Assembly (NCBI GenBank): GCA_963971405.1
Contig: OZ020487.1
Coordinates: 42,753,039 to 42,817,038 of the forward strand
Direction: 5' to 3'
Origin: Psococerastis gibbosa
Taxonomy: Eukaryota > Arthropoda > Insecta > Psocodea > Psocidae
DNA length: 64,000 nt
In this document: positions 796-57,250 of the stretch, piece after piece
Layout of the letters: each line of letters begins with the position of its first letter
Numbering within the stretch: the first letter of the stretch is position 1
Notes under the pieces: model-generated
The model's input: the letters and a program-made list of their open reading frames with translations, nothing else
Told to the model about the DNA's origin: nothing
Database searches by the model: none
Position numbers and translations under genes: made by a program

Positions 796-835
796 CCCAC
801 CAATGATGGTTTTGGATAGGTTGTTAGCCTGTTCA

Positions 836-11036: not shown

Positions 11037-11054
11037 TATTAATTTATTTATTTA

Positions 11055-20175: not shown

Positions 20176-20214
20176 GGATTTTTGTGTCATCGTCTCTGAA
20201 ACCATAATGCAATA

Positions 20215-28568: not shown

Positions 28569-29275
28569 TTAAGGCCAAGCCGGAGAGTTGTGACCTTGAG
28601 CGTTGGGTGTTGAATACATAGAAATATAATAGAACTGGAGCGGTGGCAGCCATAATATGCCTTATGAGGCACCCGTTAACCATAAGCCAACTATCAGAGA
28701 TAAGTACCAACGCAAAGAATATCGAAGTCTTACACAATGCAGCATAGCAAAGTGAATACCTGGACTCGGTCAAAAACTCTGTACTTAGCTTGTGCAGGCT
28801 ACACTGGCAGCCATATTGATAGCGGTCTCCAGCCACGGGATGGTTTAATATCCATTTTATAAACAAAGCCCCGCGTCACGTATACCTGTTCCGTATTTGA
28901 CTTGTATTATTTCAAATAATTGCAGTTTTACCAATTTCTGGCGCTTTACTGTCTAATTTAGTGTTGAGCTTCTGACTGAAGTGCATTTCATTACAAAAGT
29001 TGGAGGTTTTTCTTCCCTGTGGGGCACGTAAAAATGTTCTAAAAGGTATGTTTTTAATTGCTTCATGCACACATTTTAGACCTAATGTACAATTAATATA
29101 TAATAATATGTAATATAATAATTTTTGGTTCAGTCAATAGTGTAAACATGTCTACGCGTATACTATACCCTTCTATCGATTTATACTATGCCCTTGCGGT
29201 TTGAAACATATATTACGAACCCCCTGCAAAGACATTTCCAGGCCAGTTACGTGACCCCCTTCGGTTTGGCCTTAA
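28569..29275 (-). mobile_element. TTAA-flanked TIR element, family G copy 3, inverted
   Basis: 699-bp element (28573-29271) between TTAA at 28569-28572 and 29272-29275. It is the reverse complement of the copy at 840-1526 along its full length. It lies 370 bp upstream of the BEL/Pao element. Confidence 0.75.
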
Positions 29276-29646
29276 CCGAACCACGGGTACCACGGGTGAA
29301 TATGATTCCAATTCTACCCCTGACATCAGACTGGTATAACCTTGAAATTTTAAAATTAGGCCAACAGGGAGACTGCCAGCCACTTTGTTGTTAAAACCAC
29401 GTTGTGGGCTGGTGTGGACGAACCCTGTGATTTCCGGTTTGCAAATTCCCGCGCATAAATCTTGCATTTCCGGTATGAGGGCCAGTGCCTGCATGCATTT
29501 CATTCATTAGGTCATCACTGCCGGACGCAGCGAGCGCCCCCAATCAATATTTCACTGCTGTTGCCCACAGCGGTAATGGAACTCCGACAGCAGTGAACCC
29601 TTAACGTTATCCGTATCGGAATTTCACAAGAGCAAATGGTTAAGTT

Positions 29647-29961
29647 TAGACAAGTCTATGCATGCGGTAGGCGAGCAGACACCAGATACACAAGTTTAGT
29701 TGCAAACTGTCTATCAGAGCACTCGGCAGTGATTTCGGTTTTCTTACCTATAACTTTATTTCATCATCGTATTTAATATCATAATCCGTACCCGTACCTA
29801 GTGACTAACGTAATCACAGACACAAGATAAGAAGCACACAAGGAGCGGCAGAGCACAGAGAGGCCTCTCATCGTCAATAGCCGACCACAAGGGTGAGTGT
29901 TGCAATAGTGTTACAGGCGTCGCCAGGTACGGTCACCTTATTCCTATAGTAATCATTACTA
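29647..29961 (+). repeat. BEL/Pao 5' LTR
   Basis: 315 bp from TAGACAAGTC to AATCATTACTA, identical to the 3' LTR except for G at 29660. The boundaries are fixed by where identity with the other LTR ends and by the AAGTT duplication. It should hold the element's promoter; I cannot place a TATA box or start site with confidence. Confidence 0.95.
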
Positions 29962-30066: not shown

Positions 30067-30342
30067 ATGGCTCTCTCTGCTCAAGACTTGTTAGCGATTC
30101 AGAAGGCCGAGCTAGATGATTTGTCGTTGAGGCTCACAACGGTTAGGGACGCTGTTGTGAACTACTCCCGAGTCAAAGTGGCACTAATTAAAGCGAAACT
30201 GGACCTTGCTTACAATTTGCGGGGGGAACTGACGCAAATTCAAAGAGATATACGTGTCATTAATGCTTCTGTACCAGACCCTGATGACCGCCTTGACATT
30301 ATCAAAAGTGTAAAGGATTTTGACTCCATGATTGAGACAATA
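30067..30342 (+). pseudogene. gag-pol 5' part, interrupted by insertion
   Basis: The ATG at 30067 is 105 bases after the LTR and opens a frame of 92 codons up to the insertion. The peptide is rich in heptad-like leucine, lysine and glutamate patterns (KAELDDLSLRL, KAKLDLAYNL, GELTQIQRDI), consistent with the coiled N-terminus of BEL/Pao Gag. Inside the insert two more codons are read before TAG at 30349-30351, so this allele would make a short truncated Gag. The codon at 30340-30342 is in phase with GAA at 46835, where the frame resumes. Confidence 0.85.
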
Positions 30343-30775
30343 CCCGTATAGCACAGATTGGCTCGAAACACGATCGTGATGCGCTCGGACCTGGAGCGTA
30401 ATGTGATCGGAATGAGAGCGCAAGCAGCTCGCGATCACTATCAAATTAGGAGTTATGACCGCTTTGTGCGCAGTTTCGCTCCTGTGCGGCCGAACCAGTT
30501 CCGCACCTCCGAGCCGATCGCGAGACGATTTCGCTCCTATCCTGATCACCTCCCGCTGCTGCATAATGTTACTGCGCTCCTATTGCGATCGTCTCATGCT
30601 TCTCTTCCGCGCCTTCTTTGATCATATTATGCTTCTATTATGAGTGACTCGCGATGCTATTTTAATCTTATTATGCTGCTATTATGAGCGACTTGCGATG
30701 CTATTTTAATCATATTATGCTGCTATTATGAGCGACTCTCGATGCTATTTTAATCATATTATGCTGCTATAGTAT
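30343..30775. repeat. Left end of the giant insert: TIR, subterminal motifs and 44-bp tandem repeats
   Basis: After the TIR the sequence is rich in GATCG, GCGCTC and TTTCGCTCCT words to about 30610. From 30621 a 44-bp unit (TTATGCTGCTATTATGAGCG / ACTTGCGATGCTATTTTAATC) repeats about 3.5 times to 30775. Base composition is markedly more G+C-rich than the interior up to ~30620. Frames at 30358-30643 follow these repeats and are not genes. Confidence 0.75.
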
Positions 30776-30839
30776 GACCCTCTCATGACTGTAATGTGCA
30801 CCTATTCTAATCGCTTTCCGAGCCTGCCTTAATCTTGTC

Positions 30840-32447
30840 ATGCAGATGGTAGGATTTTTAATTACTACAAAAAACTTTTATTGTAGAAAAATAGTTTTTA
30901 TTACGGTATGCAATAAGAAAGAAACAGATTACATAGCACTTTAATATTCAATACATACAAATAAATAGAACCCACTGAAATACTGAAATAAATCGTACTT
31001 ACAGTACAAGTTCTTACTTAGCAGGCACGAGAAATACGCATGCCACAACAAATATTTCCGTAAATTTTTTTCTAACTTATTTTTTGACAATTAAATGTAT
31101 ACCAGTGACGGTAAAACATAGGATCTAAATGAAAATGACACATGTTATACTTAAAACGTAAGGCTAAGGCTACTGACAGTGATTCTCCCACTTCCAAATT
31201 TTCATTTTAGCCTATTTCAATTTAAATATTATTTGATTGGAAATATCAGCCCAGAGTGGAAATGAAATCATATTGAGCTTATTTGCTTTTTGAGTTCTAT
31301 TTGAACTACCGATTGAGATATCCACGTCATCATAGTGATGATAATATACTGTACAGTAGTCAGTAATATCATACAGTGCACTTAATATCAGAATAGTCTA
31401 CTTGACAGTTCTTTCATTTCTTTATTACTATTTATAAAAGGTTAAATCGAGTACAAACAATTTAATGAATGTAGACCTATCATTGGTATATTGTAATATT
31501 TAAACATAAAATGTGCTTTACAAGCCAGCTTAATATTTCTTTTTCTTGTTTAGTATAATTAAGGCTGCATTGAAGAAAAAAAATGTAGATACAGTGAGCC
31601 TATGAGCTATGAGCCTATGGCCCTCTCTTACACCCAACTATACATATCAACGACAGTTTAATTGCAATGTAGGTTAACAATAATAACAGGCCTACAATAA
31701 GTTTGTATTGTACATTTTACTGTCATTTTTCACCCATTTTAACCATCAAATTTAAATTCATGGGAACAAATCTTTCTTTTCCCTACTACTAAAAATGACG
31801 TTTTTATGAAAAAAATAATTTTAAGGGGGATAAAATAAATCTGATAGGTAATGTTTTAAAATAGATTTTCTAACATTGTCAAGTAGCCTCTTTGTTAACA
31901 CTACCCTTACTACTACTGTTTTTCTAATCATAAATATTCTTAAACTCCCCTTGTTTGCCATATATACTGTAAATAGTGCAAATATATATATATTCTTATA
32001 ATTCTGCGGTATGTATATTGTAACCTAAAAAAATACTGAGCATAATCAAGGATAACAAGATATATATATGATATCATATATGCAGTATATCATCAGGCAA
32101 AGGTTGGTAGAAAGCATATCATACACCTTACAAAATTACACTCGTTCTGTGGCGGCTGCATAAAAGTCTGACACGATTGCAAAGTCAATTTTTTTCAGGA
32201 GACGTGATAGGGTACCCAAAAACAGTCAACATTACATGTTAAAGAAAATGACATAGATTATACTGTTGGCTAAACATTATTAAAAACATTACTACAGCAA
32301 AAACTAGATTTACCTAGGCCTATTCTACCGTGCTAAGCTTAACCTAACACCAACCATAAAAACGAATAAAACGTTTTTGTTAATCTGAATCATGGATTTG
32401 ACACTACTTGAGGACTATTGGTTGGTAGAAATAGTTAGTTAGGGCAC
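30840..32447. other. Insert interior, no gene seen
   Basis: A+T-rich. A short SINE B fragment (AAAGGTTAAATCGAGTACAAACAATTTAATGAATG) lies at 31437-31472, and AT microsatellites occur near 31981 and 32061. No frame resembles a transposase. Confidence 0.4.
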
Positions 32448-32825
32448 TTAAAGGGCCAGCCGGAGTCGGCCATATTCCATTTTTGGTTCAAACTTCAATT
32501 TATCATGAACTATGGAATGCAGAACAATGAAAAAATGCAGAATCGCAAGAAGAATTTTTTCTCCTAATTTTGATATATAGTATGTGGCCCCCAATTCGCC
32601 ACAGTTAATGAACTCCTTCAACTTGAACTCCTGAGTGACCGTTATTTTTTGCGTATCAAGTTCACTAACTATAGCCGATCGGTATTGATAATTGCAACAT
32701 ACTATGTATCAAAATTAGGAGAAAAAATTCTTCTTGTGTTTTTGTTTTTTGTTTGCGTTCCATATTACATGAGAAATTGAAGTTTGCACAGAAATGGAAT
32801 ATCGGTGACTTCGGTTTGCTCTTAA
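32448..32825. mobile_element. TTAA-flanked foldback MITE inside the giant insert
   Basis: 370-bp element (32452-32821) between TTAA at 32448-32451 and 32822-32825. Arms of ~125 bp are inverses: left AGGGCCAGCCGGAGTCGGCC, with AGAATTTTTTCTCCTAATTTTGATA near 32552 mirrored near 32707. The GGCCAGCCGGAG end resembles the family G end (GGCCAAGCCGGAG), suggesting the same transposase class. The minus frame 32665-32871 overlaps it and is incidental. Confidence 0.75.
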
Positions 32826-35800
32826 ATGAATTTTGTAAAATTTCCAGCTGTGAGACATGGACTGAACTCACTAACTTCCGATATTACCAATGATTTTTTA
32901 ATGCAATGCCGAAGTAGAAGAGAATGCGCCAACTCAACGATAACCACGCTAAATGAGAAAAAAGCTCCTTGCATTAGTCATAATATCATTTTTATATTAA
33001 TTAATAAAAGTTTTATTGGCAGGAGTTGGGTTTTAAATTACGATTGCTTCAATAATAATAAGCGGATTTACTTAATGGCTCAATTTTAAAACGCGAATGT
33101 ACTCCCGGTCTCAAACAAAAGGTGTCTCAGCGTTGTTTTTGATTCATAGCGTATTCTTTCAACATTAACATAATCTGATACTCAAGTTAGGGCCAACAAA
33201 AATTGTCAAATGTGTCAGGAAATAAATTTATTTATGGCCTTCGGTTGCGCTATGGAAAAATGTGTCTACCCCATCGGAATAGGAAAATGCCAAAATATAA
33301 TTTCGAAAATATGTCTTTTAGCTTAGCACGGCAGTATTGGTCAGCTCTTACGTTATTGCGTTCACCTAATACACAAAGTAGACTATGCCGTTTTAGAAAG
33401 AAATAAAATTGTCTTTGATTTCATTATGAGCTCATTTTGGTCCTTTCCGCCCACTCTTACAATTAACCGATTTTAATGCATAATGTATGATATTATCATG
33501 ATGCCATAGCATACAGTTATAAGCATGATCCACTGAACCATCACTGTGTAAAATTTATCAGTTTAAGACAAAAAAAAAAAAGTTCTAAACCTTAATAATT
33601 TGACCCACTTATTAACATAGAAAAAAAAGTACCTAGCAGGAAGATAAGTGAACTGTTTTAGATGGCCCAGTGCGCTACGGATAACAGTTTGTTCAAAATA
33701 AATTAGAGTAAACAGGTTACACAAAGAAATGGTGATGGCTGTATGTCCTCATTCCTCTTTAAAAAAAAACGTACAAAAATATTTCAGGCCAATTTGATCA
33801 AACAATTTCTCCAGGGGGCACCATTGGGCCCTCGTGTTTGCAGTTTTACGAATCTTGAATTTTTAGAAATTAAACCTAACGTTACTGCTTCAAAATGATT
33901 AAAAATCAGGTTTAACATGTGTATTAGTTACTTATACTTGGAACCTGACTACATGGGCTATAATTTTTTTTTCGTATAAGTACCTATTGTACTATTGACA
34001 GATCCCCCATTCAAAATTCCTGGGCAAGGCATTGAATGTCTGCTTAATTGTATTCTACGGGGTAGTGGCTAGTTTATTCTAAGCTACTCAGAAGTCTCAT
34101 ACAATAATACTAAACTTGTTAAAAGTTAATACACCCTTCGGGTAATTGTTCATGGCTCAAATTTTATAGTTTCATTATATTATGCATTCGTTTACCGCAT
34201 TGGGTCATAACAATAATATTTTTTACAATTTCAGTAGTCCTATCCAATATTTTACTCAAAACTTTGGTCTTATGGTTTCTAAAATAAAATAGAAATAGCC
34301 GCAACTGAAATCTTTTGACGGTCCTATTCCACTTCGTCTCTCCACAGGTCCCATGGTGTTCCTTGCCGACTGAAGTTCTCCATTCTCGCTCTAAAATGAC
34401 AATCGAAGTATCTGAAACAAATGCAATTCCAGCATTATCAATGTCAGTATAGCCTATTCCAATGGCCGTAAGCATTATACATAATAGCAAAGTTTCAAAA
34501 AGTTCACCTTAATTGTTAGCGGCGTCATTATGATGTAGACCTATTTATAAGGTTGCAATAAAATTAGATAAATCAAATTTCACTCCTTTTTTACACTCAT
34601 AGCAAAAATACACTAGCCTAGAGAATTTCACCTTTTTCGAAGTACAGTACTGTTCGTTGTGAAAAAAAAGTAAGACAGCGTCTATGGAAATGGCATACTA
34701 GCCAATACTTTTTAATGTAATGACAATAAATACAGCCTTATTGGGATAATAGGGTGAGAGTAAGAATTTTGAATGTGTAAGCTTCTAAGCTATTATATCA
34801 ATGAAAATGCTAACATCGAAAATAGAACAAAATAATGGTGTAAGCAATTTATGAAGTTATACATAATAGCCACCTTATTAACTTTATGAAACTTAAATGT
34901 CACTCTTTTTATTTTGAAATACCTACTTTGGGCGGCCTATCTGAGGACTTGTTAATGCTACGCTCATCACTTACCCAGTAATGAATTCACTCTCTCGCTG
35001 GCAAGGTGGGGGCTCGGCTGTTAGAATTCCAATCTGGTCCCAAATTTTTCATAACTTCATTTCCCTAAATAACTTGTTTGTATGTTCGTAAGCTATCGCC
35101 CGAATAGGTAGTATTAATTCCTTCTGGTGATTCCTGCAAGGAAAAGATAAATAAATTAGGTATACCGAGCAGTTTTATTTAATAGTCTTTGTACAATAAT
35201 GTGCTTGATAATAATTATGATTACAATAATCAAATTAATTACGGTATTTACAATTAATAAACACGATCCCCCCCCCCCTAAAAATTGACGAGTTAAGTGT
35301 TAACACTAGATAGAATTATTAGGTTTCTTTGATGAATTTGCCCAAAATAAGAAAGTGCACGGAATTTCAACTAGATAAAATGAATAAGATTTTATTGATC
35401 AGTATATTCCAAAACATTTCAAATAACCCCTTGAAAACCAATCGATTTAAATGAACTTTTGCACCAATCATTCTGGAACCAATCCCAGCTTCGCCCATAC
35501 CTATCGATGCTTTCTTACTTCAGCCCATGTTTAAGGTGCTAAATAAAATAACAAAAGAGAACCGGGTGCTTTCCAATGCAAGGTTCTGGTTTTGATGAAA
35601 AAATAATTTGTTGAAGAAATTATGGATAATTCATCCCCACGTGACAGCCTACCCTGCCATTTTCATCACTGTGTATTACCATTACGTATTATTATATTGA
35701 TCTGCTCGTCTATGTAATATCGTGACTCAGTGATTTAGGGAAACGGAAAAATCGAGGCCACCGAAATTTATTGCAAATGCAACATTATTTAGCCTACCAT

Positions 35801-36028
35801 GGAACTACTCAAATTATTTATTACATTTACGGTACCGGCAGTATACTAATTGATGTATAAGAAAGCATGTACAGGTTCACTCGAACTTGTTCTAAGTGCA
35901 GAATGAAAAAAATGCCCGAAAGGGACTCGAAGTCTCGTTCTGGTAAGTAACCATGCAGCATGCGCATAATTATTACGAATGAACTAATCGGTCAGTCGAC
36001 CCCATGTTTACAGTTCCCAAACTTTTTT
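32826..36028. other. Insert interior, no convincing gene
   Basis: Frames of 60-110 residues (32826-33089, 33203-33406, 34164-34490 minus) show no domain I recognise. A partial, decayed family E segment may lie at about 35490-35700 (TATCGATGCTTTCTTACTTC, CATGTTTAAGGTGCTAAAT). A C-run sits at 35271. Confidence 0.35.
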
Positions 36029-36851
36029 GCTTTCCAATTTATACGGTAGTATAAGGAAAGCTTTGTGATGGTCGAAATTTTCGATTCCGAGATTTCAACG
36101 GATTTACACGTTTTGAGGTCCCAGGAACCCAAAACGGTGGTTTTTACGAAATGTTTGTCTGTCACTCTGTCTGTCTGTCTGTCTGTATGTCTGTTCATCG
36201 ATTTCCGGGCAAACGACTCAGTCGATTTTGATTAAATTTGGTATGTAGGTTTACAAAAATCATACCTCAGGACCATTTTTTTTATTTTGGGCCAACTCAA
36301 TTTCGGGGGGTTTTATTCTCAAAAAACTAAAAAAAAACGTCTAAAAACATTATTTCTCCAAAACGCTCCAACGATTTCTTTTAAATTCACATATGTTGTA
36401 GTCGTTAGTAATATTGACAAAATGCGGGGGGTCGCTTGCCCCTTGGTAGGTTGCTTCTGGGGGTAAAAAAATAAAAATAACTAAATTTTAATGAAAAATG
36501 ACTAAAAAATAATTTTCTGCGAAACCTTTCTATCGATGACTTCTACCTTCAGGCATGTTTTAGGTGTTAAATTGAGTAACGGAACCGGACAGGTTGCTTT
36601 CCCAAAAAACTATTTGGTTTTGTGCAAAAAATTATTTTTTTGAAAAAAATGAAAATTCGCGCTCAAATGCATTGCGTGTCCTGCCATTATTGCTCCTCCA
36701 GTGACGTCAGGTGGACAATGCCCCCCCCCCCCCCCGAGATATCGGAAATCTGACCATAGGTAAATTTTTTACCATGAAATTACTCATTTTCTCGATCTAC
36801 TAATGTTGTAAATTGGAAAGCATGTTCGAGTAAACTCGGACCGGTTCTTTT
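36029..36851 (+). repeat. Family E element, copy 2
   Basis: Begins GCTTTCCAATTTATACGG and ends TAAATTGGAAAGCATGTTCG...CGGACCGGTTC. It contains the CTGTCTGTCTG tract, GGGGGTCGCTTGCCCCTTGG, GCATGTTTTAGGTGTTAAATTGAG and a C-run after GTGACGTCAGGTGGAC. Unlike copies 1 and 3 it has no SINE immediately upstream. Confidence 0.65.
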
Positions 36852-37460
36852 AGGAAGCAATACTCCAGATTTCCCCTGATTTTGCAGTAATACACTGCTA
36901 TTGACTGCTTTACATCAAAATTTCCCCAGTTCCTTTATTGTAGTAGGGCCCTACAAAACTTGTTGTTATAAATGCTTTGAGCCCAATAATTTCGTACGGT
37001 AGTCAAAATGTTTCATACCGGTACCTGCTTGTATTTTTCTAACGATGGGATTTAGGAGGGTTCTGGGAGTTTATACCCCCCCCCCCCCAAAAAAAATGCG
37101 GCATAGATATAATTTACAAATAATTCATACATTCATACGAAAAATTAGTGCTTCTGGGCAATGTAAAATATAAATTTGTCTGCTACACAAAATTACGCAA
37201 ATCCCCACTACGGCATTGTTTTAAATCCCCCAGAGGAGACCCCCCCCCCCCCCCCGAGCTTTATGAATACGATTAGTCTGTAGAATCTAAAAGTGTTTTG
37301 TTCTCAAAATACCTATGCCTCATTATTTCACACTTACATTTTTAAATAAAAGCCCCTATTTAGAACATTTTAATAAGTCTTCATCTGTAAAATCTAAACT
37401 TCAAATGTGCAAACGAACTGTTCTGCTTCAGGACTATTATATACACATATATATATATAT

Positions 37461-37560
37461 TTTTTTTTTTTACAAAAAGGTTAAATCGCGTACAAAAAAT
37501 TTAATGAATGTATCCGATTAACCTCTTCAATCGTCTAAGTCACCTGAAGCCACCGAAGTC
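37461..37560 (-). repeat. SINE family B, internally deleted copy
   Basis: T-run, AAAGGTTAAATCGCGTACAAAAAATTTAATGAATGTATCCGATTAACCTCTTCAATCG, then a jump to GCCACCGAAGTCG. C-rich MITE-like runs precede it (37073-37090, 37242-37256). Confidence 0.5.
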
Positions 37561-38671
37561 GCTTATTATAACATTGTTTTATCATAACCCTTCGTCACTC
37601 AAATCTAAACTGCTCTCAAAATGTGTTAGCTCCCACTATTTCAGGTCTATTTTAAAAAAGTCAGCATCTGAAATACCCCACTGTTCCAATGTTCCATATA
37701 GTAATAATATATTTAGCAAACAAATCACAGGGGCGTACCCTGGACTCCGTGCTTGGAGTCATTTCTATAAGACTTTTCATGGAATGTTCATTTTTCAACT
37801 TGTGTAGGTGCGCCTATACACACAATTGTATGTTGGGGGGTGCCTTAATAGGAAATTACACTCACCGTCACCCCCGTCTTACCGAGCTGATAACCTCCCC
37901 TGAAAAATTTTCTCTGGACCCCGTCCCCCGTTCCAACGAGCCTTAATGGTGCCCTTGCCCCTAGCCTGAGAACTGTCTACACCCTTGACGTCTCGGACTC
38001 CCCCGTGCGCCTGGTCCCTCCTCTGAATCAGCTATTTAGTTATTAGTTTATAACTTGCCTACGGTTCCTTGATCTGTAAAAACGGTCCTTGCTCAAAAGA
38101 AGGTGGGTAGTGGACACTAATTTGGTCTATGGGTCTGGGGTGTGTGCGAAATATATATTTTCGGTTCTACACGCCTTCGGCTTCCCCCCCCCCCCCAATG
38201 GAGCTGGGGCAAGTTGGACCGTGCCCCCCCCCTATTAACGCCCCTGCTACTGCTACTACACGCCATTTCAACAAACATAATTTCAAATTTCGATAAAGGC
38301 TGGGACAGTACTACGAACTACGATATATTATAGTGTAGAAACGAAGAAGCCTGAAACAAGGGCCAAGGTGACCCTCCTTTTTGTCAAACACCCCTGGTAG
38401 TGGTATATACAATCTTGTCTACTTGTACTGCTGTGTTGCCAAGCTGGATAACGGTAAACAATTAGTACAATGGTCTTGACCTGCGTTGCGGCGTTGCCAC
38501 GCTTCCAAATTTCATTTACCTACCAAGTACCAACTACCAACATCAGTTTCTAGTTTCAACTTTTGGATTTTGAACCGAAATGAATTTGTTAAACGTGGTT
38601 CATAACATTTCTCAAATGGAAATGCAATTACATATTATATTGCAGTATTAAATGGTGTATTATAACACTGA
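37561..38671. other. Insert interior, C-rich and A+T-rich patches, no gene
   Basis: Words such as CAGGGGCGTACCCTGGACTCC (37728) and a C-run at 38184 suggest further G/C-run MITE remnants without definable ends. No coding evidence. Confidence 0.35.
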
Positions 38672-39549
38672 CATTAAACCATTGGCGTAAATAGGGGGTC
38701 CTGGGGGGGGGCTTAGCCCCCCCAGGTCCACCCGTAGCCCCCCCCCCCCGGATTTCTGGTGGCAAAGACTTTATGGAGGCTAAAGGTATAGTATCCACAA
38801 TAATGAAAGGGAAATTAATTCTTAATATGCTTATTTTAAATGAAAAAAATCAACATATTGACCAAGTACTTTCACAAAAAATATATTACTCAAAATGCTT
38901 AAAACCCCACTATTTCAGAGCTATTTTTTCCAAATTTTTTCTGCGAGGGAGACCCCCGGGCCCCCCATAATGGTAGGTTTATTCGTCGTTATAATAGCTT
39001 AATAATATTGCTTGCAAACATTGGCGTAAATAGGGGGTCCTGGGCTAAGCCCCCCCCCCCACTTCCCAGGATTTCTGGTGACAAAGACGTCATGGGGGTG
39101 AAAGGCCAATACAACCCACAATAACAATTGGGAAATTAATTCTTGGTACCATATGCTTATTTCACAAAGACGTCATGAAAAAAATCAACATATTGACCAA
39201 GTACTTTCAAAATAATATATTACTCAAAATGCTTAAAACCCCAATTTTTCAGACCAATTTTTCAAACTTCTTCTTCGGGGGAGACGCCCAGGCCCCCCTC
39301 AGTGGTAGGTTTATTCGTCTGCAAAATTTCAACTGTACTGCTTGCAAAATGCGTAAAACCTCCCTAATTTGGGCCTATTCATCAATTTTTTTTTCTCCGG
39401 GGGAGACCCCCGGGCTCCCCTTCCTCCAGGATAGAATATGCGTAAAACCTCACTAATATGGGCCCATTTATCGATTTTTTTCTCCGGTCTTGGGGTCCTA
39501 AAGCCCCCCCCCCCCAGAAATTTTGGGAATTTACGCCAATGCATTAAAT
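38672..39549. mobile_element. hAT-like MITE with nested internal copy
   Basis: Element 38680-39541 has ends CATTGGCGTAAATAGGGGG and, inverted, CATTGGCGTAAATTCCC. Flanks CATTAAAC (38672-38679) and CATTAAAT (39542-39549) are an 8-bp duplication with one change. A second left-end-like sequence (CATTGGCGTAAATAGGGGGTCCTGG) starts at 39019, so copies are nested or partly duplicated. The interior repeats AATGCGTAAAACC and CCGGGGGAGACCCCCGGG. An unoccupied homologous site is at 62455-62505. Confidence 0.75.
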
Positions 39550-39689
39550 TAACTTTGGTTGAAGAGGAAACCGTTATTTATTTATTTTATTTATTTAACC
39601 TCCACGTAATAACGGAACTGCTATTAAATTGGAAGGTGTAAATTAAACAACCTTACTTTTTAACCGCCTAATAAATACAATAGGTACTA

Positions 39690-40130
39690 AAAGACCGTAG
39701 GCAGGGTGGGGGGGGGGCTTATGGGGCTGCAGCCACCGTAGGAGACACCACCACCCCCATTTACAGCAATATAAATATATAAGCATTCCCTTTTTAGCTT
39801 TGAGCTTTGTAAAATCTAGAGCTATACTTTACTGTTATTAAAAAAAAAAAAACACTATGTTGCAATTATACGTATTTTCCCTATTTTTCAAAAAAAATCT
39901 CTATATATTCATAATATATTCATTGCCTGTAAAATATAAAACGTATTGCTCTCAATTGCGTAAAACCCCAAAATGTTTCAGACGGGGGAGAGACCCGCCT
40001 CCCCCCCCCCCCCCCTCCTGTTCGCAATTACGTATATTATTTGCCTGCAATATCTCAAAGTTACTGCCATCACAATGCGTAAAATCAAAATATTTCTGTT
40101 CTGCACCGCCCCCGTTTTATGAGGTCTGGG
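39690..40130. repeat. G/C-run MITE relative, ends unclear
   Basis: GACCGTAGGCAGGG next to a G-run, GGGGCTGCAGCC, then TGCGTAAAACCCC and a C-run at 40001: the same interior order as 7052-7540. No target duplication found. Confidence 0.5.
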
Positions 40131-40574
40131 ACTACCTCTGCTGAAATAGGCTCATAAATCCCATTAAAATTTGTTAAAATTAAAATGGTTTGTATGTAAG
40201 CCCAAGTCCATCATATATCGAGGCGTTACGAGTATTTAGGACAGGTAAGAAAAGGTAGGGTCGGTTGGATTTGTTCTTATGTAGACCTAAATGCTGTACG
40301 ATGCTGAATATGAAATGAATGGATTCGGGCCATGCTGGGCACCGCCTATTAAATCCCTTTTGAAAAAGGGCACCGGCTCCAAAAAAATCTTGAGAACCAC
40401 TGCTATAGTATGTAGTGAAATGTCGCACATTTGGAAAGTTGAATCCTATCTGGCTTATGTACCGTACAACAAACAAATTTGGGGGGGGGGGGGGATGGGA
40501 CGATTGCATATTCTAGAGCGGGTAGATCAATACATTAAAACACAATAATAATGGCAGGGTATGCCATGTATTAA

Positions 40575-40935
40575 GGCATAAATTATCATTTTCTTCGAAA
40601 AATAATTTTTGTACAAAACCAAATCATTGTGAAAGCTATTTTGGGGTTTATTACCCTATAACTATAACTATAACAATAACATAAAACATACCTGAAGTAA
40701 GAAAGCATCGACAGAAAGGTTCCATAGAAAGGTTATTTTTTAGTACTATTTCGTAAAAATTGAGTCTTTCTTTTTTTACCCCCAGAACCAAGCTATCAAG
40801 GGGAAAGCAAACTTTTGCCTTTTGTTACCATAAATGACGACTAGGCTACAATATAATTTTGTGAATTTATAGAAAATCGTTGGAGCCGTTTTCGAGAAAA
40901 CAATTTTTAGCCGTTTTTTTTTTTTTAGTTTTTTG
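40575..40935 (-). repeat. Family E fragment, inverted
   Basis: On the minus strand it reads family E landmarks in order: AAAACGGCT-type sequence, ACGATTTTCTATAAATTCAC, GGGGGTAAAAAAAG, ACCTTTCTATGGAACC, CTTACTTCAGGTATG, then TTTGGTTTTGTAC. It is more divergent than the three full copies. Confidence 0.5.
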
Positions 40936-41083
40936 AGAGTGACACCCCCAAAATAACCGGTACGTGTTGATTAAGTTTGATTGTATAATTTAACAGAAAT
41001 ACACGTTTATTTATTTAGATTAATTAATAATTAATGGGACAATTTTCGTAGATATTCTTATGATTACAATTGTTTAATGACCT

Positions 41084-41265
41084 CTTGGATAACTTATAAT
41101 AATAATAATTTATGTATGCATTTATCAAAAGGCATTACAAATTATACTGAAACCAAAGCCAAAAAGACGCGTTGGGATCACCACACAATTTACTGTAGGC
41201 CAAGTAGATTTATTTGTTCGTGCCACTTACATTACTTTTATACTGTACCTTTGAGTAGACTTCAT
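41084..41265 (-). repeat. LINE 3' tail copy
   Basis: Matches 25090-25260: AATTATACTGAA, AAAGCCAAAAAG, GCGTTGGGATCACCACACAATTT, TGAGTAGACTT, with a TAATAATAAT microsatellite at the 3' terminus. It is almost wholly non-coding and heavily 5'-truncated. Confidence 0.6.
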
Positions 41266-41771
41266 GGCCGTGCCCATTAAGTAAAATTAATAAATTAAGT
41301 AAAAAAAATTTAGAACCCCCCCCCCCCACCGAAATGTAATGGCTTGATACTAGATAGAATCGGATTATGAGAGGAAAAATAAAAACTACTATGTAATATC
41401 CAATAGCCCCCCCCCCCCCCCCCGAAACAAATCCTCGCTACGGCCTTGTGGACAAGTAACAGTTTCTTAAACTGATGACAAGTTGTAATGTGGAAATGTA
41501 GTGTTTATATGCAAGATTTTCCTGTTTTTTCAAGTGGCGTTGGCTGAAAAAGAAGATTTTTTAAATTTTTCCAACTACATAGGGCGCATACCCGAAAATT
41601 AAGCTGGAGTTGCAGTTTGTACTTATTTCTGAAGGACTAGATGTAGGCTAATAAATGTACCAACCACGTTTGTTAGTATTTTTTTATTGGCGTTTTTTTC
41701 CATTTGGCGGTGGTTTGTTCTCAGAGATGTAAATAAAAATATTATGACTAAATAAATAAATAAGTAAATAA

Positions 41772-41974
41772 TGCCTTTTTTTTCTATAACTAAGCCAACC
41801 TAGTGGAGTTAGGGCTTTTATAAAGCCCTCTCTTACACCCAACTAGGGAAGCCCGGGACCGCCTGCTTTACATGCCCTCCAAAGCATGGCCAGAAAATGT
41901 AGCCAGTGTAGGACTCGAACCAACAACCTTTCGGGTGAAAGCCAGAGTCCGTTCCACTACTCTACATGTCCTAA
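41772..41974 (-). repeat. SINE family A copy, minus orientation
   Basis: Reverse of family A: GGGCTTTTATAAAGCCC, GGGACCGCCTGCTTTACATGCCCTCC, GGACTCGAACCAACAACCTTTCGGGTGAAAG and ACTACTCTACATGTCC. Translated frames through it spell GLEPTTFRVK, a known artefact of tRNA-like SINE heads. Confidence 0.7.
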
Positions 41975-42179
41975 ATGGGGTTGGAGGCCATTTTCAAAGG
42001 ATTTATGGGACTTTTTGCTATCAAACTAAATTGACCCCTCCTTATCAAACAAGACAGCGTTAGCATCAATACCATTCTAATTGCGCAATCGGGGGCCACA
42101 ATCATTTGTCTTTAAAACTTAAAATCTGACCTGGTGACGGACAGATTAGGAATCGACAGGGTCGGATTAGTAAAAAACA

Positions 42180-42806
42180 CAAGACAAAGACATAAGAAAG
42201 TGAGGGGAAAGGGGGGGGGGGGCTGTGATGACTACAATCCTATCTAGTGTAAAATGGTCTTTTGGTATCCAATGTATTCTCTATATAAAGTTTATTATGG
42301 TGTTACTCCAATATATTGCATAATAGCGGAGGCACATCAAACGTCAATTTATTGACGGACTTAGCTTTGGTGCAGACACAGGCAGATAATATTTTGTGGA
42401 TATGCGGACTAAATCGTTGTGTTATTACTACGACGGTTTAGATTGTATATAGAAATACTATTGAATTTAACCCCCGGGGGAAAAATTGGAAACTATAAGC
42501 TAGTGCAAAATAGTGGGGTTTTACGCATTTTAACAGTAGTAGAGTATACGAGTAGATTTTAAAAAGCTTACGAAGGAATGGTTATTCATATTGATGCAGA
42601 CAGAGGGGCCAGGGGGTCCACCCAGGGGGAAATATTTTGAAAAATAGGTTCGAAATATTGAGATTTTACGATTTTAACAGTAGTAAGCTTATAATTTGCA
42701 GAGGAAGACATATTCATATCACTGTAGGCCTACTAGATTTATTTAATTCTCAACTTTTAATTTCGGAAAGGGGGGGCTGCAGCCTGCCCCCTTGCCTACG
42801 GCCTTG
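42180..42806 (-). mobile_element. G/C-run MITE, inverted relative of 7052-7540
   Basis: On the minus strand the right edge reads CAAGGCCGTAGGCAAGGGGG, and the interior mirrors 7140-7500 (GGTGTTACTC, CATCAAACG, TAGCTTTGGTGC, GCGGACTAAA, CCCCCGGGGG, GTTTTACGCA). The left limit and target duplication were not found. The element contains extra material near 42600. Confidence 0.55.
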
Positions 42807-43770
42807 GTGTAGTCAATCGTTTGGATACAAAGGCAACATATTTCTGGGAACATGGGGAAATTCAAATGCTCCAGCTGGTTCCTTTTTCATGTTTCTATAT
42901 ATTCACATACCGTATGTACCATGCGTAATGAATAATGAAAATGTGAATGTGACCCACAGACCAAAGTACGGTACCTTATATCGTATTTGGCAAGCATCCA
43001 TGTATTTGTATTAATTAATATAAAGTTATATTTCAATCAATAAAGAAATTATGGGCGGCCCATTGGCTTTATTTTATCTAGTTTGACCACTGCATGGTCT
43101 GCAACCTGCATGACAGGTGTGTATTATATGAGTTCTTACTTCTTTGGTCAAGACTCAAGGCTTACCTATGGTGGGTGGCCTACAGGGCTACAGAAGACAA
43201 ATAAAAGAAAATTTCGTAGCTATCCTTGTTCGTCCGTGGGACTGTGACTATACAGAGTTTTACTGTGACTACAGAATTTTACTGTGACTGTGACTACGTA
43301 TTTTACGTGTAGTATGTAGAACAGGATATTTATAATAAAAAAATGATCAAAAACTTACCTTTATTTATGCCAACGAAGAACGAACAACTTTCCCATTATA
43401 TCCATAGCGTAATAATTGTCCTGAAAGAACACATCACACACTCACGGCTATAGATAATCGTTAGACGTTAATAATAATACTATAAAAATAAATGCGATGC
43501 GAAATTGCGGACTGTGAAGGTGGCGCGTCTTGAAAAGTTGAAAATCAGCCATCAGGCATCAGGAGGGTAAAATTAGAGCCTGGAGGCTGGAGGGAATAGG
43601 GATTGCCGCATTCCTAAGCTCAAGGCTAAGCCAACACCCTATAATGGAAACAATATACCCCTAGTTTTTACTTTTTACCTGAATTGGCTGGTGCGTGCCT
43701 GCGTGGTGGGTTTGCACTTTGCACCGTATGTGTATAGGCCTACGCTTAATTAACGCTATGGCCTACGTGA
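42807..43770. other. Insert interior, no gene seen
   Basis: A+T-rich, with a short local repeat ACTGTGACTA(C)AGA at 43246-43296. No frame with a recognisable motif. Confidence 0.4.
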
Positions 43771-44077
43771 CATAGCATCAGGCGCGGATCTACGGGGGGG
43801 GGGGCTATGGGGGCTATTGCCCCCCCCATTAGGGTCCTCAAAATGCGTAAAACTTCACTATTTCAGTCCTATTTTTCCCCAATTTTCTCCCGGGGGAGAC
43901 CCCCCGGCCCCCCTTGTGCCCTATTGTATTAATTACCTATAATATAGAACCCTCATTGCTCTGAAAATGCGTTAAACCCCAACATTTCAGCCCTATTTTC
44001 CAAAAACAAATTCGAAATTTAATCTCACTTCTCAGCCCCCTCCTTGGTCTCATTCTAGATCCGCGCCTGCATAGCAT
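43771..44077. mobile_element. hAT-like MITE with perfect 8-bp TSD
   Basis: Element 43779-44069 between CATAGCAT direct repeats (43771-43778, 44070-44077). Ends are CAGGCGCGGATCTA and its exact inverse TAGATCCGCGCCTG. The interior has G and C runs, AATGCGTAAAAC and CCCGGGGGAGACCCCCCGG. Perfect flanks and ends suggest a recent insertion. Confidence 0.88.
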
Positions 44078-46439
44078 TGCATATAATATTATGTAGGCTA
44101 ACTAGACGAGTTGGCGGAGCTGCCCATAAAAATTTAGTCATTTTTACAGGAGCCATCATATTATTATATTGTCAGTTTAACTGTCTAGTCTTAAATTATA
44201 TTTGCCAATTCTGGCATAAAGACTAAATTTATAGCGTATTCAATTTAATTATGGTGTAATTAACACTGTAGGTTCACACAAAAAACAACCCAATGGGGAC
44301 TGCGACTGATCCCTCATGACCACTGCCTTATTGGGGATGTTGCAGTCAGCAACATGACCAACCGCCGCGTTCTTCCCCTGACTACCAATGAACCCAATTT
44401 AAAGTTCGCTGGACTCAGGCTGGGCAAGTTTTGACCTTTGACCTTCCGTATCATAGAGCTAGTCATCCACTCATCCAATTCTCTGGCAAATGGATTACTC
44501 CTGACCAGGCAATCGAACGGTGCTACAATATAGGTCAATAGAATGGATTGCTAAAAGCAAATTTTCATTATATTTCCTGTTGACATGACAAAAGAGAATA
44601 CTACATGACGTATTAAAGTCGGTCCATACTGTACATAAAAGCCTGACGATCAGGGTTGATGTTCAGGCCTATCATTACCACGACAGATTCAAATTGAGGC
44701 CAGCCCTTGACTGCTGTAGGCCAAACCTCGAAACTAACAAAAACTTGTATATGCAAAATGATAACATACTCTCTTATGGCATATTGTACTAGGCCTAAGA
44801 AAAGCGTCGGGAACCTTTAATGAAACAATCTGCACACGGCTTACACCCAAAAGTCCAAGAATTTATTGATTTTGACTAATCACTTTTAAGGCTTAGCTAA
44901 TCCAAAAGAAATTGGCTATGCTGCGTGCCCAAGCTAGAAATCAAAACATGGAAGAATTAGCCGAAATGCAATAATAATGTTATTTTCTAGTGTAGTTTTA
45001 ACTATTTTACTCATTTCAATTTCCTGTACTTACATAGTTCTCTTTAAAGAGTTTCACGATGTTTAATATTTATGTGATTATTTTAAAGGGATTAAATCAA
45101 ATTAACTAGTACCATTTAAATGAGCGCAAGCAAAATTTAAAAAGGGCGCGATTCTGGGAAATCATAATGCGCATGCTCCGTGATAGAAATGCCTGTGACA
45201 CTTGTACATTGCTTGCAGAACCATAATTTTGCAGTATTACCTTACACAGGCAATTATAACTCCTGGAGAAGTCGAGTTATATATTCATGTTGAACTTGGC
45301 TTTACTTTTGCAATGTTATTATAGTTTATAGGTTATGATTATTAACCTCGTATTGATGTTAAGCGAAACCTTAAAATTATCGGTGCATTTAGGACAATAT
45401 TATTACCATAATTTTATACTCCAACGAACAATTTGACCTAATCTGACAGCAATGTGTTCACTGTGTTCGACCGATTTCGATCGATTGCGCGAAAGTCTGG
45501 GTAGGCTATATTATTGTTAAAAACTCTTAAGATATTATGCTCATAAAATATATTTTTACTTTACTTTACTATGAAATTATTATACTTATTACTTACCGGG
45601 TTACCTACCTATATATTTTATGTAGTTCAATGCAATGAGCCAACTTCAATGGGTCAATAACACCGCCCAATAGGAACGGTATTTTTTAACAGCCTATTTA
45701 TTAATAAGTAGGCCTAATTATTTAAAAATGTATGTCTCCAATCAAGCTTGATGATGTATCGGAAATGTGCGATATACTCAATTAATGAGTTGATTAATAT
45801 TCTAAGTCTCATCTTAAAAGTAGTCCATATAATAGGCTATATGCTATACAGTATGCATACTGTATGTATATAATATGTTGTAGACTAAATATTTCATTTC
45901 TTTTAATGAAAGTGTACTAGAAGGTTGCATGCGTTTTATATTACTTTACGGCTCATATTGTACCCCCCCCCCCCCTATTACACACTCGAATGTGGTTCTG
46001 CAATAAATTAATCTAATAATAAACACGAGTCTAAAAAACATTGGAAAAAATTGGAAAGAAATACTGCACCATATACATTCAGATGTACATCATATGTATG
46101 CTGTAAATGCCTCAACATAAACAGTCCTAACATGGTTCGAATATAAATATTATAGAGTGTGTAATCAGGGCATATACAACCTTTTTATTTGTCACTAAAA
46201 ATTAGCTTATTACCTGCAGCAATAGGCTAAAATATGTAATTGAAAATCCAATTATGATGATAGGCTAGTAATTTATATTAAAGAAATTTACTTCAACCTG
46301 GAACAGAACCTTTGACTCACTGGTCCATGCACATAACTCGGTTCTCTACCGATTGGACTAGGTACTGGTAAAAATTGACAGTTACAGATGACAGCATGAG
46401 AGCGTTTTGCTATGATCAAAATAGGTTCCTTTAAAGCCA
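44078..46439. other. Insert interior, no gene seen
   Basis: A+T-rich with scattered TAGGCCTA words and a C-run at 45963-45975. The minus frame 44314-44538 and others show no motif. No transposase candidate. Confidence 0.4.
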
Positions 46440-46466
46440 GAGGAAAGTTAAAAATAATCTGAAAAC

Positions 46467-46832
46467 AAGATTTAGATGCCATCGCGAGAGGAGCGAAACA
46501 AGAGCGCGCTCCGAATATGCGCCTGTAAAGCAAGGATCTCAAAAAAAGATTTTGATGACATCGTGAGAGGAGCGAAACAAGAGCGCGCTCCGAATATGCA
46601 CCTGTAAAGCGAGGAGCTCAAAACATGACCGGGAGAGGCTCAAAATCGAAGCGTTCTAAAAGGTGCTTTATGCGATCGTATCGGTGTTTAGATGACATCG
46701 CGAGAGGAGCGAAACAAGAGCGCGCTCCTAATATGCGCCTGAAAAGCGAGGTGCTCAAAACATGAGCGGGAGAGGCTCAAAATCGTAGCGCTCTGAAAGC
46801 TACCTTTTGCGATCGTCTCGGTGCTATACGGG
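46467..46832. repeat. Right end of the giant insert: three subterminal repeat units and TIR
   Basis: Three units carry GAGAGGAGCGAAACAAGAGC then GCGCTCC, ATATGCGCCTG and AAAGCGAGG (centred near 46500, 46580 and 46720). The last two end with a terminal-like word: TGCGATCGTATCGGTGTTTAG at 46671 and TGCGATCGTCTCGGTGCTATACGGG at the true end. So the terminus has been duplicated internally. This layout is typical of transposase-binding subterminal arrays. The minus frame 46288-46542 is incidental. Confidence 0.75.
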
Positions 46833-46834
46833 TA

Positions 46835-49800
46835 GAAGTCAAGTATTACGAGTCATTGGATCTGTCCCGTGCAAGTCGCAACGCTGCACCGAGCACACCG
46901 ATACCTGCACAGCAGCAAAGCTCTGGCATTAAGTTGCCTAATATTCAAGTTCCAGTCTTTTCAGGGAATATAAAAGAATTTAGCCGATTTATAAAATTAT
47001 TTGATGCCGTTTATGACAAACATCCTAATCTTACAGGCTCTGAAAAATTCTTTTATTTACAGTCATCCCTGTCTGGTGATGCGTTGGCCTTAGTTGGTAA
47101 TTATCCGCTAAGCGATACGGGTTACGTTAGTGCCGTCCGGGCGCTAAAGGACGCTTATGATTGTCCCAGAACTCTCGCATCTACTTATGCACATGAACTT
47201 TTGAATTTCGTACCGGCCAAAAAAGCCACTACTGATACTTTAAAAAGTTTCTTAACCGTACATCAAGACTATGTCACGGCCTTGAAAGGTCTTAGTTCTG
47301 TTACGGACTTAGCCGATTTTCTGTTGCTGACCATAGCGTCAAAAAATCTTGATCCTTTAACACGTAAGCTGTTCGAACAACATGTTGCTTCGGGTAGCAT
47401 TCCACAGTTTAATGACTTAATTTCTTTTGCCACTAAGCAAGTTAATACACATCAGCTCCTTGAGTCTGAAAAAAGTACATCAGCATCTTCGGTGCCTACA
47501 CCTGAAGGTCACAAGTTTCAACATGTCAAGCCTTTCTCTCATGCAAGGGCTCTTCATGCTAAGCCTGCTAATTCCAAGCCGGCCAATTGTAAACAGCAAT
47601 TCGTCGTCAATTGTGTTTATTGCTCCTCTGATGGGCATAAAATTTCCAGATGTTCTGCATTCTTGTCTATGGACGTGCAGCAACGTACCGACTGGGTTCT
47701 CACCTCTAAAAGGTGCCCAGCTTGCATGTCTACCTCACATTGTGACGTCACTTTATGTAAAAGTAAGCGTCAATGCTTTTTTTGTGCATCAGTCACACAT
47801 AATTCTTTACTCTGTCCGCAAAGGTACGGTACTCAAACAGTAGAGAATAAGAAGCCTATTCAAAACAACCTTACGCTCTTAACCTGTCAATCTGACAGTG
47901 CTAAGGTCCTAGGTACGATATCAGCTTTTGTTACTGATAAATCAGGTTACACTCACACTGTAACTTGTGCAATAGATACTGGTTCTACAGAAGATATAAT
48001 TTCTTTAAGTTGTGCTAACAAATTGGGCTTATTTATTTCCCGTAGGAATAAGTTGTCAATTGCGGGTATTGGTAATATTCAACAACAATCTATTGGTAAT
48101 GTCAATCTTAACCTGCAATCTCGAGTCAGTCCAACTGCATTCCTGCAGATTTCTGCTTATGTTGTCCAGAAAATAACGGATACTTTACCTAATGTACAGG
48201 TTCAACCAGACTTTGTTCGGTACATCAGCAACTTACCGTTAGCCGATCCGCAACCGTTCGTTGAAAAACGGATAGAGGTACTCTTGGGCGGGGAATCCAC
48301 CCTTGCCATACTGCAAGGTATGCAGGTCCTACCTTTTAAGTCAAAATTCTCTGATATCAATCCACGTGCCCTGCAAACACGTTTTGGGTTGGTAATTCTA
48401 GGGAGCATTCCCACTATACCAAAGCAAACTAATAATCCTCTGTCACTTTTAGCACACACTAACTCTCTTGAACAATCAATGGAAAGATTTTTTGAGCAGG
48501 AATGTGTTCCTGACTCTAAAAATGAGTGCCAAATACCGAATCCTGATGATGTATTCGCTGAAAACCATTTTCTACAAACACACTCTCGTGATCTAGATGG
48601 TAGGTTTATAGTTGCTTTACCTATAAAAACGCCTACAGAAACACTAGCCTGCAACCGTGCACGTGTCATGGCCAGTTTTCACTCAATGGAAAAACGTATC
48701 TTAAAGTCGCCTAAAGACTACTCTACTTATCAGTCTGCCCTACAAGATTATCTGAATAAAAATCAAATATCGTTCAGTAACCAGTCTAATAATTTTCTGT
48801 TTTCGCAAATCGTTAAATACAATAGCGCTGGAAAAGCTAAATTAGTTTTCGATGGAACTCTAAAAGCTAACAAAGATAGCTCTAACTTTAATTCAGTACT
48901 GTATAGTGGTCCAAAGTTACAAAGAGACTTAAACTATATTATACTAGCTACCCGTGTATTTCCTGTATGTTTTTCAGCAGATATTGAGACCTTTTTCAGA
49001 AATATTAAAATTACACATGAAGACTCTGAAAAAATACACATATTAGCTCGACTAGAACTCGCTTGCGGTTCTCCGCGAGCGTCGCCTGAAGGGAAAATAA
49101 CAGAGTGCAAATTAAATCACTTACCTTATGGTCTGAAGTGTAGTCCATTTATTGCCCTCAGATGTACTAAACAATTAGCGATCGAAAATAATCTTTCACA
49201 TCCAAATGCTTCACAAGCTATATTACAGTATGCCTACTGTGATGACTTCTTTATTGGTTCAAAGTCTATTCAGTCAGCTATTTCGCTACGACACGAACTG
49301 TCAGAGCTACTTTCTTTAGGGGCCTTCCCTCTTGGTAAGTTTGTAAGCAATTGCCCGGAGGTGTTAGAAGGTCTGCCCTCTGAACGACTGGGCAACCCAG
49401 TGCACTCCTTAGATTCTGACTCTGGTTATCTTAATACTAGTCAAGAAACAGCTGTATTAGGACTACAATGGCAAACAGTCTCAGATAATTTCTGTTTCAA
49501 AATTTATAATTTTTCTGGTGACGTCACTAGACGCACTTGCCTAAGCTATATAGCCAAGACATTTGACAGCTCGGGTTTACTTCAGCCAGTGGTCTTCTGG
49601 TTAAAAACATTTGTACAAAACTTATGGCACCATCACTCTGACTTAGGTTGGGACTGTACTCTACCTGAGCACCTTAAGTCAAAATGGCTGAACTTCACGT
49701 CTAAAATGCACCTACTGTCTAATATTCGAATTCCTCGATACATAACGTTTACCAATGCCACTCATTGGCTAGTATTATTCGCAGATGCCTCCATTCTGGG

Positions 49801-51832: not shown

Positions 51833-51993
51833 TATATAATTGTATGGACTTGAATTTAAGATCATATTATTTTTTTTTAATTTTCATATATTGTTGAGAA
51901 GAATTTATTATTGCATATATATATTGTGTCATACTGTATGATCGGAGTAGTTCATAACAGTTTCTCTGTCTGGTGTGTACATCCCTTTTCGCT

Positions 51994-52000
51994 GGGGGAG
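51994..52000 (+). promoter_or_regulatory. Candidate polypurine tract
   Basis: GGGGGAG ends two bases before the 3' LTR, the expected place for the primer of plus-strand DNA synthesis. A second purine run (GAGAAGAA, about 51896) is farther away and less likely. Confidence 0.55.
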
Positions 52001-52002
52001 CA

Positions 52003-52317
52003 TAGACAAGTCTATACATGCGGTAGGCGAGCAGACACCAGATACACAAGTTTAGTTGCAAACTGTCTATCAGAGCACTCGGCAGTGATTTCGGTTTTCT
52101 TACCTATAACTTTATTTCATCATCGTATTTAATATCATAATCCGTACCCGTACCTAGTGACTAACGTAATCACAGACACAAGATAAGAAGCACACAAGGA
52201 GCGGCAGAGCACAGAGAGGCCTCTCATCGTCAATAGCCGACCACAAGGGTGAGTGTTGCAATAGTGTTACAGGCGTCGCCAGGTACGGTCACCTTATTCC
52301 TATAGTAATCATTACTA
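52003..52317 (+). repeat. BEL/Pao 3' LTR
   Basis: 315 bp, TAGACAAGTC to AATCATTACTA, with A at 52016 as the sole difference from the 5' LTR. AAGTT follows. Confidence 0.95.
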
Positions 52318-52369
52318 AAGTTAGCCATTCGCATAGCTCGTAAAAACGCAATGCTTCTTGTTGGTTGCA

Positions 52370-57245: not shown

Positions 57246-57250
57246 TTATT

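What the first reader, a model, noticed from the sequence alone, without database searches (positions are those of the whole stretch)
30343..46832. Giant (16.5-kb) TIR element with TA duplication, no visible transposase, inside a BEL/Pao gag gene
Seen: perfect 12-bp inverted termini, TA on both sides, shared subterminal words at both ends, and a host frame that is in register across the gap. Known: TA duplication is typical of Tc1/mariner-type elements, which are usually 1-5 kb. Inference: this is an unusually large mobile unit, possibly a new non-autonomous family or one that picks up genomic DNA between two end sequences.
Basis: partly seen in the sequence, partly recalled or inferred. Interest (0 to 1): 0.88.

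Follow-up and report, generated by a model that had tools for sequence, protein, structure and literature searches.

The report
Giant noncoding transposon family, recently active
A 16.5-kb piece of DNA in which no gene could be recognised has recently jumped, nearly always whole, to about two dozen places in what looks like an animal genome, which is much longer than gene-less jumping DNA usually is.

Summary
The unit (30343-46832) has perfect 12-bp inverted ends and splits a young BEL/Pao gag that relatives show uninterrupted. The same genome holds 22 paired copies plus five single ends. Nineteen copies compared over ~9.7 kb differ by 0.23%, so this is a family that moved recently, not a one-off capture. 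All 17 machine-read copies and the window have identical flanking dinucleotides, but only 7 of 18 are TA, which rules out Tc1/mariner. The ends (CCC start, short inverted repeat, 2-bp duplication, clustered subterminal motifs) work like animal CACTA-related (TRC/EnSpm) elements; membership is unproven because no transposase was found. No Pfam domain or clear coding constraint appeared in the parts tested. Unexpectedly, a second family with unrelated ends (long inverted repeats, 8-9-bp duplications, Mutator-like; about 20 kb in the copy read) carries the same core, colinear at 82% over 10 kb. Remnants of the first family's subterminal motifs lie inside it, as if it had captured an older relative. 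A long noncoding DNA moved by two machineries would be a new variant of non-autonomous transposon. The transposases remain the main gap.

The parts
29647..29961 (+). 5' LTR of the host BEL/Pao retrotransposon (TSD AAGTT at 29642-29646)
52003..52317 (+). 3' LTR of the host BEL/Pao element, 1 substitution in 315 bp against the 5' LTR (TSD AAGTT at 52318-52322)
30067..30340 (+). N-terminal part of the BEL gag, left of the insertion
46835..51829 (+). rest of the BEL gag-pol frame, right of the insertion, open as it stands; DUF1759, Peptidase_A17, RVT_1, rve, DUF5641
30341..30342 (.). target-site duplication TA, left copy
46833..46834 (.). target-site duplication TA, right copy
30343..30354 (+). 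left terminal inverted repeat CCCGTATAGCAC
46821..46832 (-). right terminal inverted repeat CCCGTATAGCAC
30355..30860 (+). left subterminal region with TCGCGA/GAGCGA/CGATCG words and a 44-bp tandem repeat (30617-30770)
46457..46820 (+). right subterminal region: 79-bp and 137-bp tandem units with GAGGAGCGAAACAAGAGCG words
30861..46456 (.). noncoding core; first ~9.7 kb of the unit colinear in 18 of 20 copies read, core probe in all 22 pairs
30632..46794 (+). outer limits of the blocks shared with the second family (F2); 10.0 kb in 26 collinear blocks at 82%; F2 lacks the outermost ~290 bp and ~40 bp
36023..36850 (.). nested repeat inside the core, relatives at 11051-11914 and 57245-58029; F2 lacks it and looks like the empty site

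Best explanation
The unit is one copy of a young family (called F1 here) of very large, non-autonomous cut-and-paste DNA transposons. A transposase supplied in trans recognises the 12-bp inverted ends plus arrays of short subterminal sites, excises the whole ~16.4 kb and inserts it with a staggered cut that duplicates 2 bp. The interior is a passenger: noncoding DNA that has accumulated nested repeats and travels because it lies between the ends. The ends work like animal CACTA-related (TRC/EnSpm) elements. Shown: clean insertion, 2-bp duplications, high copy number, near-identity, no known domain and no clear coding constraint in the parts tested. Inferred: cut-and-paste mechanism, trans-mobilisation, CACTA-type transposase.
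For: clean empty site in gag relatives; 20 of 20 left ends fetched start exactly at the terminus, in different flanking DNA; 17 of 17 copies with both ends machine-readable have an identical 2-bp duplication; in one, inside an AT repeat, four bases match; tally TA 7, TC 4, AT 2, AA, TT, TG, AG, CA one each, of 18; 15 of 20 measured pairs are 16.1-16.5 kb; 22 pairs counting one with a 1-mismatch end, 5 single ends, 0 in control; 18 of 20 copies colinear over ~9.7 kb, two of them in two pieces; mean pairwise substitution 0.23%; second half of one copy colinear at 99.2%; 801-bp core probe in all 22 pairs; subterminal clustering; 23-25 with control 29, and 75 (no clear coding signal). Passages of PMC1636069: animal TRC elements start with CCC and make 2-bp duplications; its Tribolium TIR CCCTAGTAGCACCGA... 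matches this right end at 12 of 15 positions.
Against: No transposase with these ends was found: every paired exact-end element has the core, and PF02992 gave 0 matches in the genome (its controls also gave 0, so inconclusive). The Tribolium comparison has 3 mismatches in the first 11 bases, which fails the Repbase rule of at most 1 (rule seen in passages of PMC4455052). CGATCG, GAGCGA and GCGAGA also occur a few times in the middle of the unit. Five of 20 measured pairs are longer (17.9-26.8 kb; the extra DNA was not read) and two of 20 sampled copies (C13:2.80, C19:22.89) are rearranged.
Confidence: 0.78

Rival explanations
1. Autonomous giant element: the 16 kb hides a transposase gene of a kind absent from Pfam or split into many small exons.
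For: The animal TRC SmTRC1 makes spliced transcripts (PMC1636069 passages). Family searches only see described domains. No other source of transposase was found. About 6 kb of the unit has no F2 counterpart in the constraint test.
Against: No Pfam hit in six frames of 30900-45901 at E<=1 (control 29). Against the 82% identical F2 core, of 7 shared open stretches of 40 or more codons six have dN/dS 0.73-1.5 (the longest, 94 codons, 0.8); one of 40 codons has 0.3.
Confidence: 0.13
2. Tc1/mariner-type giant.
For: TA on both sides in the window copy; TA is the commonest duplication (7 of 18).
Against: 11 of 18 copies have another dinucleotide, each duplicated exactly. The ends do not start with the CAGT-like bases usual for Tc1 (recalled).
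Confidence: 0.02
3. Segmental duplication or misassembly joining two retroelement halves.
For: The unit is long and the window alone cannot exclude it.
Against: The boundary is identical at 20 of 20 left ends fetched, in unrelated flanks, with matched 2-bp duplications and an uninterrupted gag in protein relatives.
Confidence: 0.01
4. One-off capture or composite: two small end elements mobilised the genomic DNA between them at this locus.
For: The interior contains repeats also found elsewhere in the window.
Against: No internal copy of the inverted repeat with fewer than 3 mismatches. The core probe lies in all 22 pairs.
Confidence: 0.04

Closest known systems
TRC (Transposon Related to CACTA) / animal EnSpm elements: SmTRC1, the Tribolium and Aedes TRCs (PMC1636069 passages), Spongebob (PMC4298943 passages)
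   Same: Termini begin CCC; inverted repeats of 10-54 bp; 2-bp duplication; 12 of 15 terminal bases shared between the Tribolium TIR and the right end here.
   Different: The full-length ones are 4.5-9.2 kb and mostly carry a transposase; this is 16.4 kb with no detectable gene; 3 mismatches in the first 11 bases.
Large coding CACTA: plant Rim elements (14.1 kb on average, PMC1636069 passage); En/Spm of Chondrus crispus (16-20 kb, 4-5 ORFs; as cited in PMC6431247)
   Same: Size range and proposed superfamily.
   Different: Those are described as coding; here no gene was found.
Pack-MULEs and large retrotransposon derivatives (as described in PMC6431247 passages)
   Same: Non-coding or captured DNA moved in trans between transposon ends.
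   Different: The review says none of the first reported Pack-MULEs exceeded 7 kb and LTR-borne loads rarely exceed 10 kb; here a 16.4-kb unit multiplied, and two unrelated end types share one core.
ESTA and ISL2EU (PMC12730594, PMC4482050)
   Same: 2-bp duplications.
   Different: ESTA duplicates TA; ISL2EU duplicates AT within AATT and usually starts GG; here the dinucleotide varies and ends start CCC.

Membership tests
TRC/CACTA (animal EnSpm) | Termini start with CCC | tested here: met
   definition from passages of PMC1636069
TRC/CACTA (animal EnSpm) | 2-bp target-site duplication | tested here: met
   17 of 17 machine-read copies, plus the window
TRC/CACTA (animal EnSpm) | Transposase_21 transposase in the element or an autonomous relative | tested here: inconclusive
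   None in 30900-45901. Genome search with PF02992: 0 matches, but controls also 0
TRC/CACTA (animal EnSpm) | Repbase rule: same duplication length and at most 1 mismatch in terminal positions 1-11, tested against the one published TIR chosen (Tribolium) | tested here: not met
   3 mismatches, positions 4-6; rule in PMC4455052 passages. So described as working like a TRC, not filed as a member
TRC/CACTA (animal EnSpm) | Subterminal repeat arrays (recalled for CACTA) | tested here: met
   TCGCGA 5 of 5, GAGCGA 7 of 8, CGATCG 5 of 7 sites in the outer regions; tandem 44-, 79- and 137-bp units
Tc1/mariner | TA duplication in all copies | tested here: not met
   TA in 7 of 18
MITE | Short length (under about 1 kb, recalled) | tested here: not met
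   15 of 20 measured pairs 16.1-16.5 kb; the shortest paired copy is ~5.7 kb
Polinton/Maverick | DNA polymerase B, integrase and capsid genes | tested here: not met
   No Pfam family in six frames of 30900-45901
Mutator-like (for the second family F2) | Long inverted repeats and 8-9-bp duplication (recalled for Mutator) | tested here: met
   In one copy the first 331 bp of the two ends differ at 4 sites; 4 of 5 copies with both ends read have 8-9 identical flanking bases, C2:20.68 does not
Mutator-like (for the second family F2) | MULE transposase | not tested
   The search with the F2 end did not complete by the server

The most novel reading that the evidence does not exclude
A long noncoding DNA core (16-20 kb) is itself the persistent selfish unit: it has been propagated by at least two unrelated transposition systems, first with CACTA-like ends and then, after capture of an older relative, with Mutator-like ends, so that cargo outlives its vehicles.
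Probability: 0.5. Interest if true: 0.85.

Novelty: new variant of a known kind. Interest (0 to 1): 0.74.

Why it matters
Non-autonomous DNA transposons are usually short (recalled). [quoted passage not shown] A 16.4-kb unit without a recognisable gene, in 22 paired and mostly near-identical copies, shows that such loads can multiply naturally. A core shared by two families with unrelated ends makes transfer of cargo between transposition systems testable. The many young insertions make excision, empty alleles and the identity of the trans-acting enzyme accessible to experiment.

Tried and rejected
Rejected: Tc1/mariner (varied dinucleotides); misassembly and segmental duplication; composite of two small elements; ISL2EU, Pangu and Nuwa on duplication grounds (PMC4482050), Spy likewise from recall. 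Led nowhere: the 14-mer in viral contigs gave 56 stretches with one match each, i.e. no paired ends (contents not examined); phage collection no match; Rfam and tRNA scans of the window empty; PF02992 in the genome 0 with silent controls; Pfam on the F2-only stretch L137:3859-10000 none in six frames at E<=0.1 (the rest of F2 was not scanned); C1:6.13, a core copy at 87%, showed neither F1 nor F2 similarity in the 1.4 kb where the F2 left end was expected.

My first reading of the LTR age (98.5% identity) included bases outside the LTR; the corrected value is 1 substitution in 315 bp. So the BEL copy is itself very young.

Literature searches. I saw titles and abstract openings of the listed papers only (0-15 per search, of up to 468), plus passages of PMC4482050 (and its section 5), PMC4298943, PMC12730594, PMC4455052, PMC1636069 and PMC6431247. 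None of what I saw describes a gene-less animal element of this size; these are word searches of an open-access library and do not prove absence from print.
Full report
The finding. The exact 14-mer TACCCGTATAGCAC is at 30341-30354 and, inverted, at 46821-46834, with no other exact match in the window. The element is 30343-46832.

The host gene. The BEL element spans 29647-52317 with 315-bp LTRs differing at 1 base and a 5-bp duplication AAGTT. Its frame right of the insertion is open. Of 13 related proteins found, four (P0001-P0004) match both the left and the right gag piece, at adjoining positions: in P0004 residues 12-98, then 102 onward, where three residues of this gag fall on three of P0004. 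The other nine match the right piece or neither. The short empty-site join is in frame if one TA is kept. This is a clean insertion with a 2-bp duplication.

Copies in the genome. The window lies in a 409-Mb, 68-contig genome. The left 520 bp has 41 matches (60 candidates, 40 scored): the window, 23 others over all or nearly all of the query at 91-100%, two over its first 250-350 bp, 14 over query 385-518 only, and one second piece. The right 380 bp also has 41 matches (54 candidates, 40 scored): 23 long ones including the window, two in a C19 array, and 16 over query 233-340 only. An exact 15-mer terminus pattern has 48 matches and 0 in the reversed control: 26 left and 22 right ends, forming 21 exact inward pairs. 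A 22nd pair (C3:0.757) has one mismatch in its right end. Five ends are single: C12:5.19, C13:2.80, C19:22.89, C21:0.25 (left) and C3:44.64 (right). Of 20 pairs measured, 15 are 16.1-16.5 kb and five are 17.9-26.8 kb; the first ~9.7 kb of those five is colinear, so the extra DNA lies further in and was not read. The two pairs not in that list are on C21: one is a ~5.7-kb internal deletion at 97.5-98.6%, the other spans about 27 kb and was not read.

Ends and duplications. All 20 left ends fetched start exactly at CCCGTATAGCAC, in different flanks. Of 20 right ends fetched, 17 had a left flank and an exact right end, and 17 of 17 show the same dinucleotide on both sides. Of the other three, one left flank was not fetched, one is a single end, and one has the mismatch; that one reads TA on both sides by eye. 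The ~5.7-kb copy reads AA on both sides by eye. With the window the tally is TA 7, TC 4, AT 2, and one each of AA, TT, TG, AG, CA.

Age and interior. Of 20 copies read for the first ~9.7 kb, 16 align in one piece at 99.0-99.4%, two in two pieces, and two are rearranged. Among 19 sequences (window plus 18) mean pairwise substitution is 0.23%, range 0.05-0.35%. The window copy differs from the majority at 17 of 9,684 positions. One copy was also read through its second half: 99.2%. An 801-bp core probe (33800-34600) was found in all 22 pairs and one single-ended copy at 99-100%, and at 85-87% in 17 further places; 149 first-look candidates, 40 scored, so the core is likely more numerous than counted here.

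No gene found. Six-frame translations of 30900-45901 gave no Pfam family at E<=1, while the same treatment of 40000-55000 found six BEL families in one of the two frames tried.

The second family. Parts of both ends matched at 94-95% and about 80% in other places, spaced 19-44 kb by my subtraction. One such locus, C3:3342800-3363500, was read. It is colinear with this core in 26 blocks covering 10.0 kb at 82% but lacks the outermost ~290 bp and ~40 bp. Instead it has its own long inverted repeat starting GAGAC. In another copy (C13) the two ends differ at 4 of the first 331 positions. Four of five copies with both ends read show identical 8-9-bp flanks; C2:20.68 does not. The C3 right end is a truncated repeat joined to an inverted one, and the C21:4.24 left end is not intact. 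A further core copy, C20:5.68, has the F2 left end; C1:6.13 showed neither end where expected. Of five F1 subterminal motifs tested, the three GAGCGACTCGCGATG, GAGCGAAACAAGAGCG and GACATCGCGAGAGGAGCGAAAC occur once each inside F2 (near 633 and 19770) and three times each near the F1 ends; the other two are absent from F2 (up to 1 mismatch). I infer that F2 captured an F1-type element rather than the reverse; a tree would test this. At one point F2 looks like the pre-insertion site of the 0.8-kb repeat nested in F1 at 36023-36850, so F1 probably gained load after the split.

Coding constraint. Between F1 and F2 cores, 7 shared open stretches of at least 40 codons exist; dN/dS is 0.3 in one of 40 codons and 0.73-1.5 in the other six, the longest being 94 codons at 0.8. 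A conserved gene in the shared blocks is unlikely; about 6 kb of F1 is not covered by these blocks.

Mechanism. Shown: precise ends, 2-bp duplication, many young copies, and motifs concentrated near the ends (TCGCGA 5 of 5, GAGCGA 7 of 8, CGATCG 5 of 7, GCGAGA 3 of 5). Inferred: a trans-acting transposase binds these ends and moves the unit by cut and paste. Animal TRC elements have CCC starts and 2-bp duplications (PMC1636069, passages; PMC4298943, passages), and the Tribolium TIR matches the right end at 12 of 15 bases, with 3 mismatches in the first 11. The likeness is suggestive but falls short of the Repbase rule (PMC4455052, passages). PF02992 found nothing in the genome, but the controls were silent too.

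Novelty. A review (PMC6431247, passages) says transposition efficacy drops above 6 kb of cargo, that the first reported Pack-MULEs did not exceed 7 kb, and that 100-200 kb loads were mobilised in artificial constructs; it cites 16-20 kb En/Spm with 4-5 ORFs in a red alga. The word searches listed in Tried and rejected showed no gene-less animal case of this size.

Noticed in passing
L137, L138, L127 (C3:3342800-3363500) and L125-L134, L139-L147, L152: Second giant family (F2, about 20 kb in the copy read) with long GAGAC... inverted repeats and 8-9-bp duplications that contains a diverged copy of the same core.
   Followed up: partly
L150 (C19:30857900-30859400): A tandem array of sequences like the right subterminal repeat (about 70-90% identity), with no exact F1 end listed near it; satellite-like.
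   Followed up: no
L148 (C21:989500-995300): A ~5.7-kb internally deleted, older copy (97.5-98.6%) with AA duplication; short derivatives exist but the full-length form is the one that expanded.
   Followed up: partly
window 835-1531, 19509-20176, 28569-29275: A ~700-bp repeat in three copies at about 90-91% identity, one inverted.
   Followed up: no
window 13595-13881, 14784-15072, 63146-63346: Repeat pieces at 93-96% identity, related to further copies near 22-25 kb.
   Followed up: no
window 2142-2545, 9794-9936, 14491-14764, 17857-18249, 32448-32826, 58073-58293: Self-inverted (foldback-like) stretches of about 140-400 bp.
   Followed up: no
G000 C21:782241-809400: A pair of exact ends 27 kb apart, carrying the core probe at 99%, perhaps with nested insertions; not read.
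   Followed up: no
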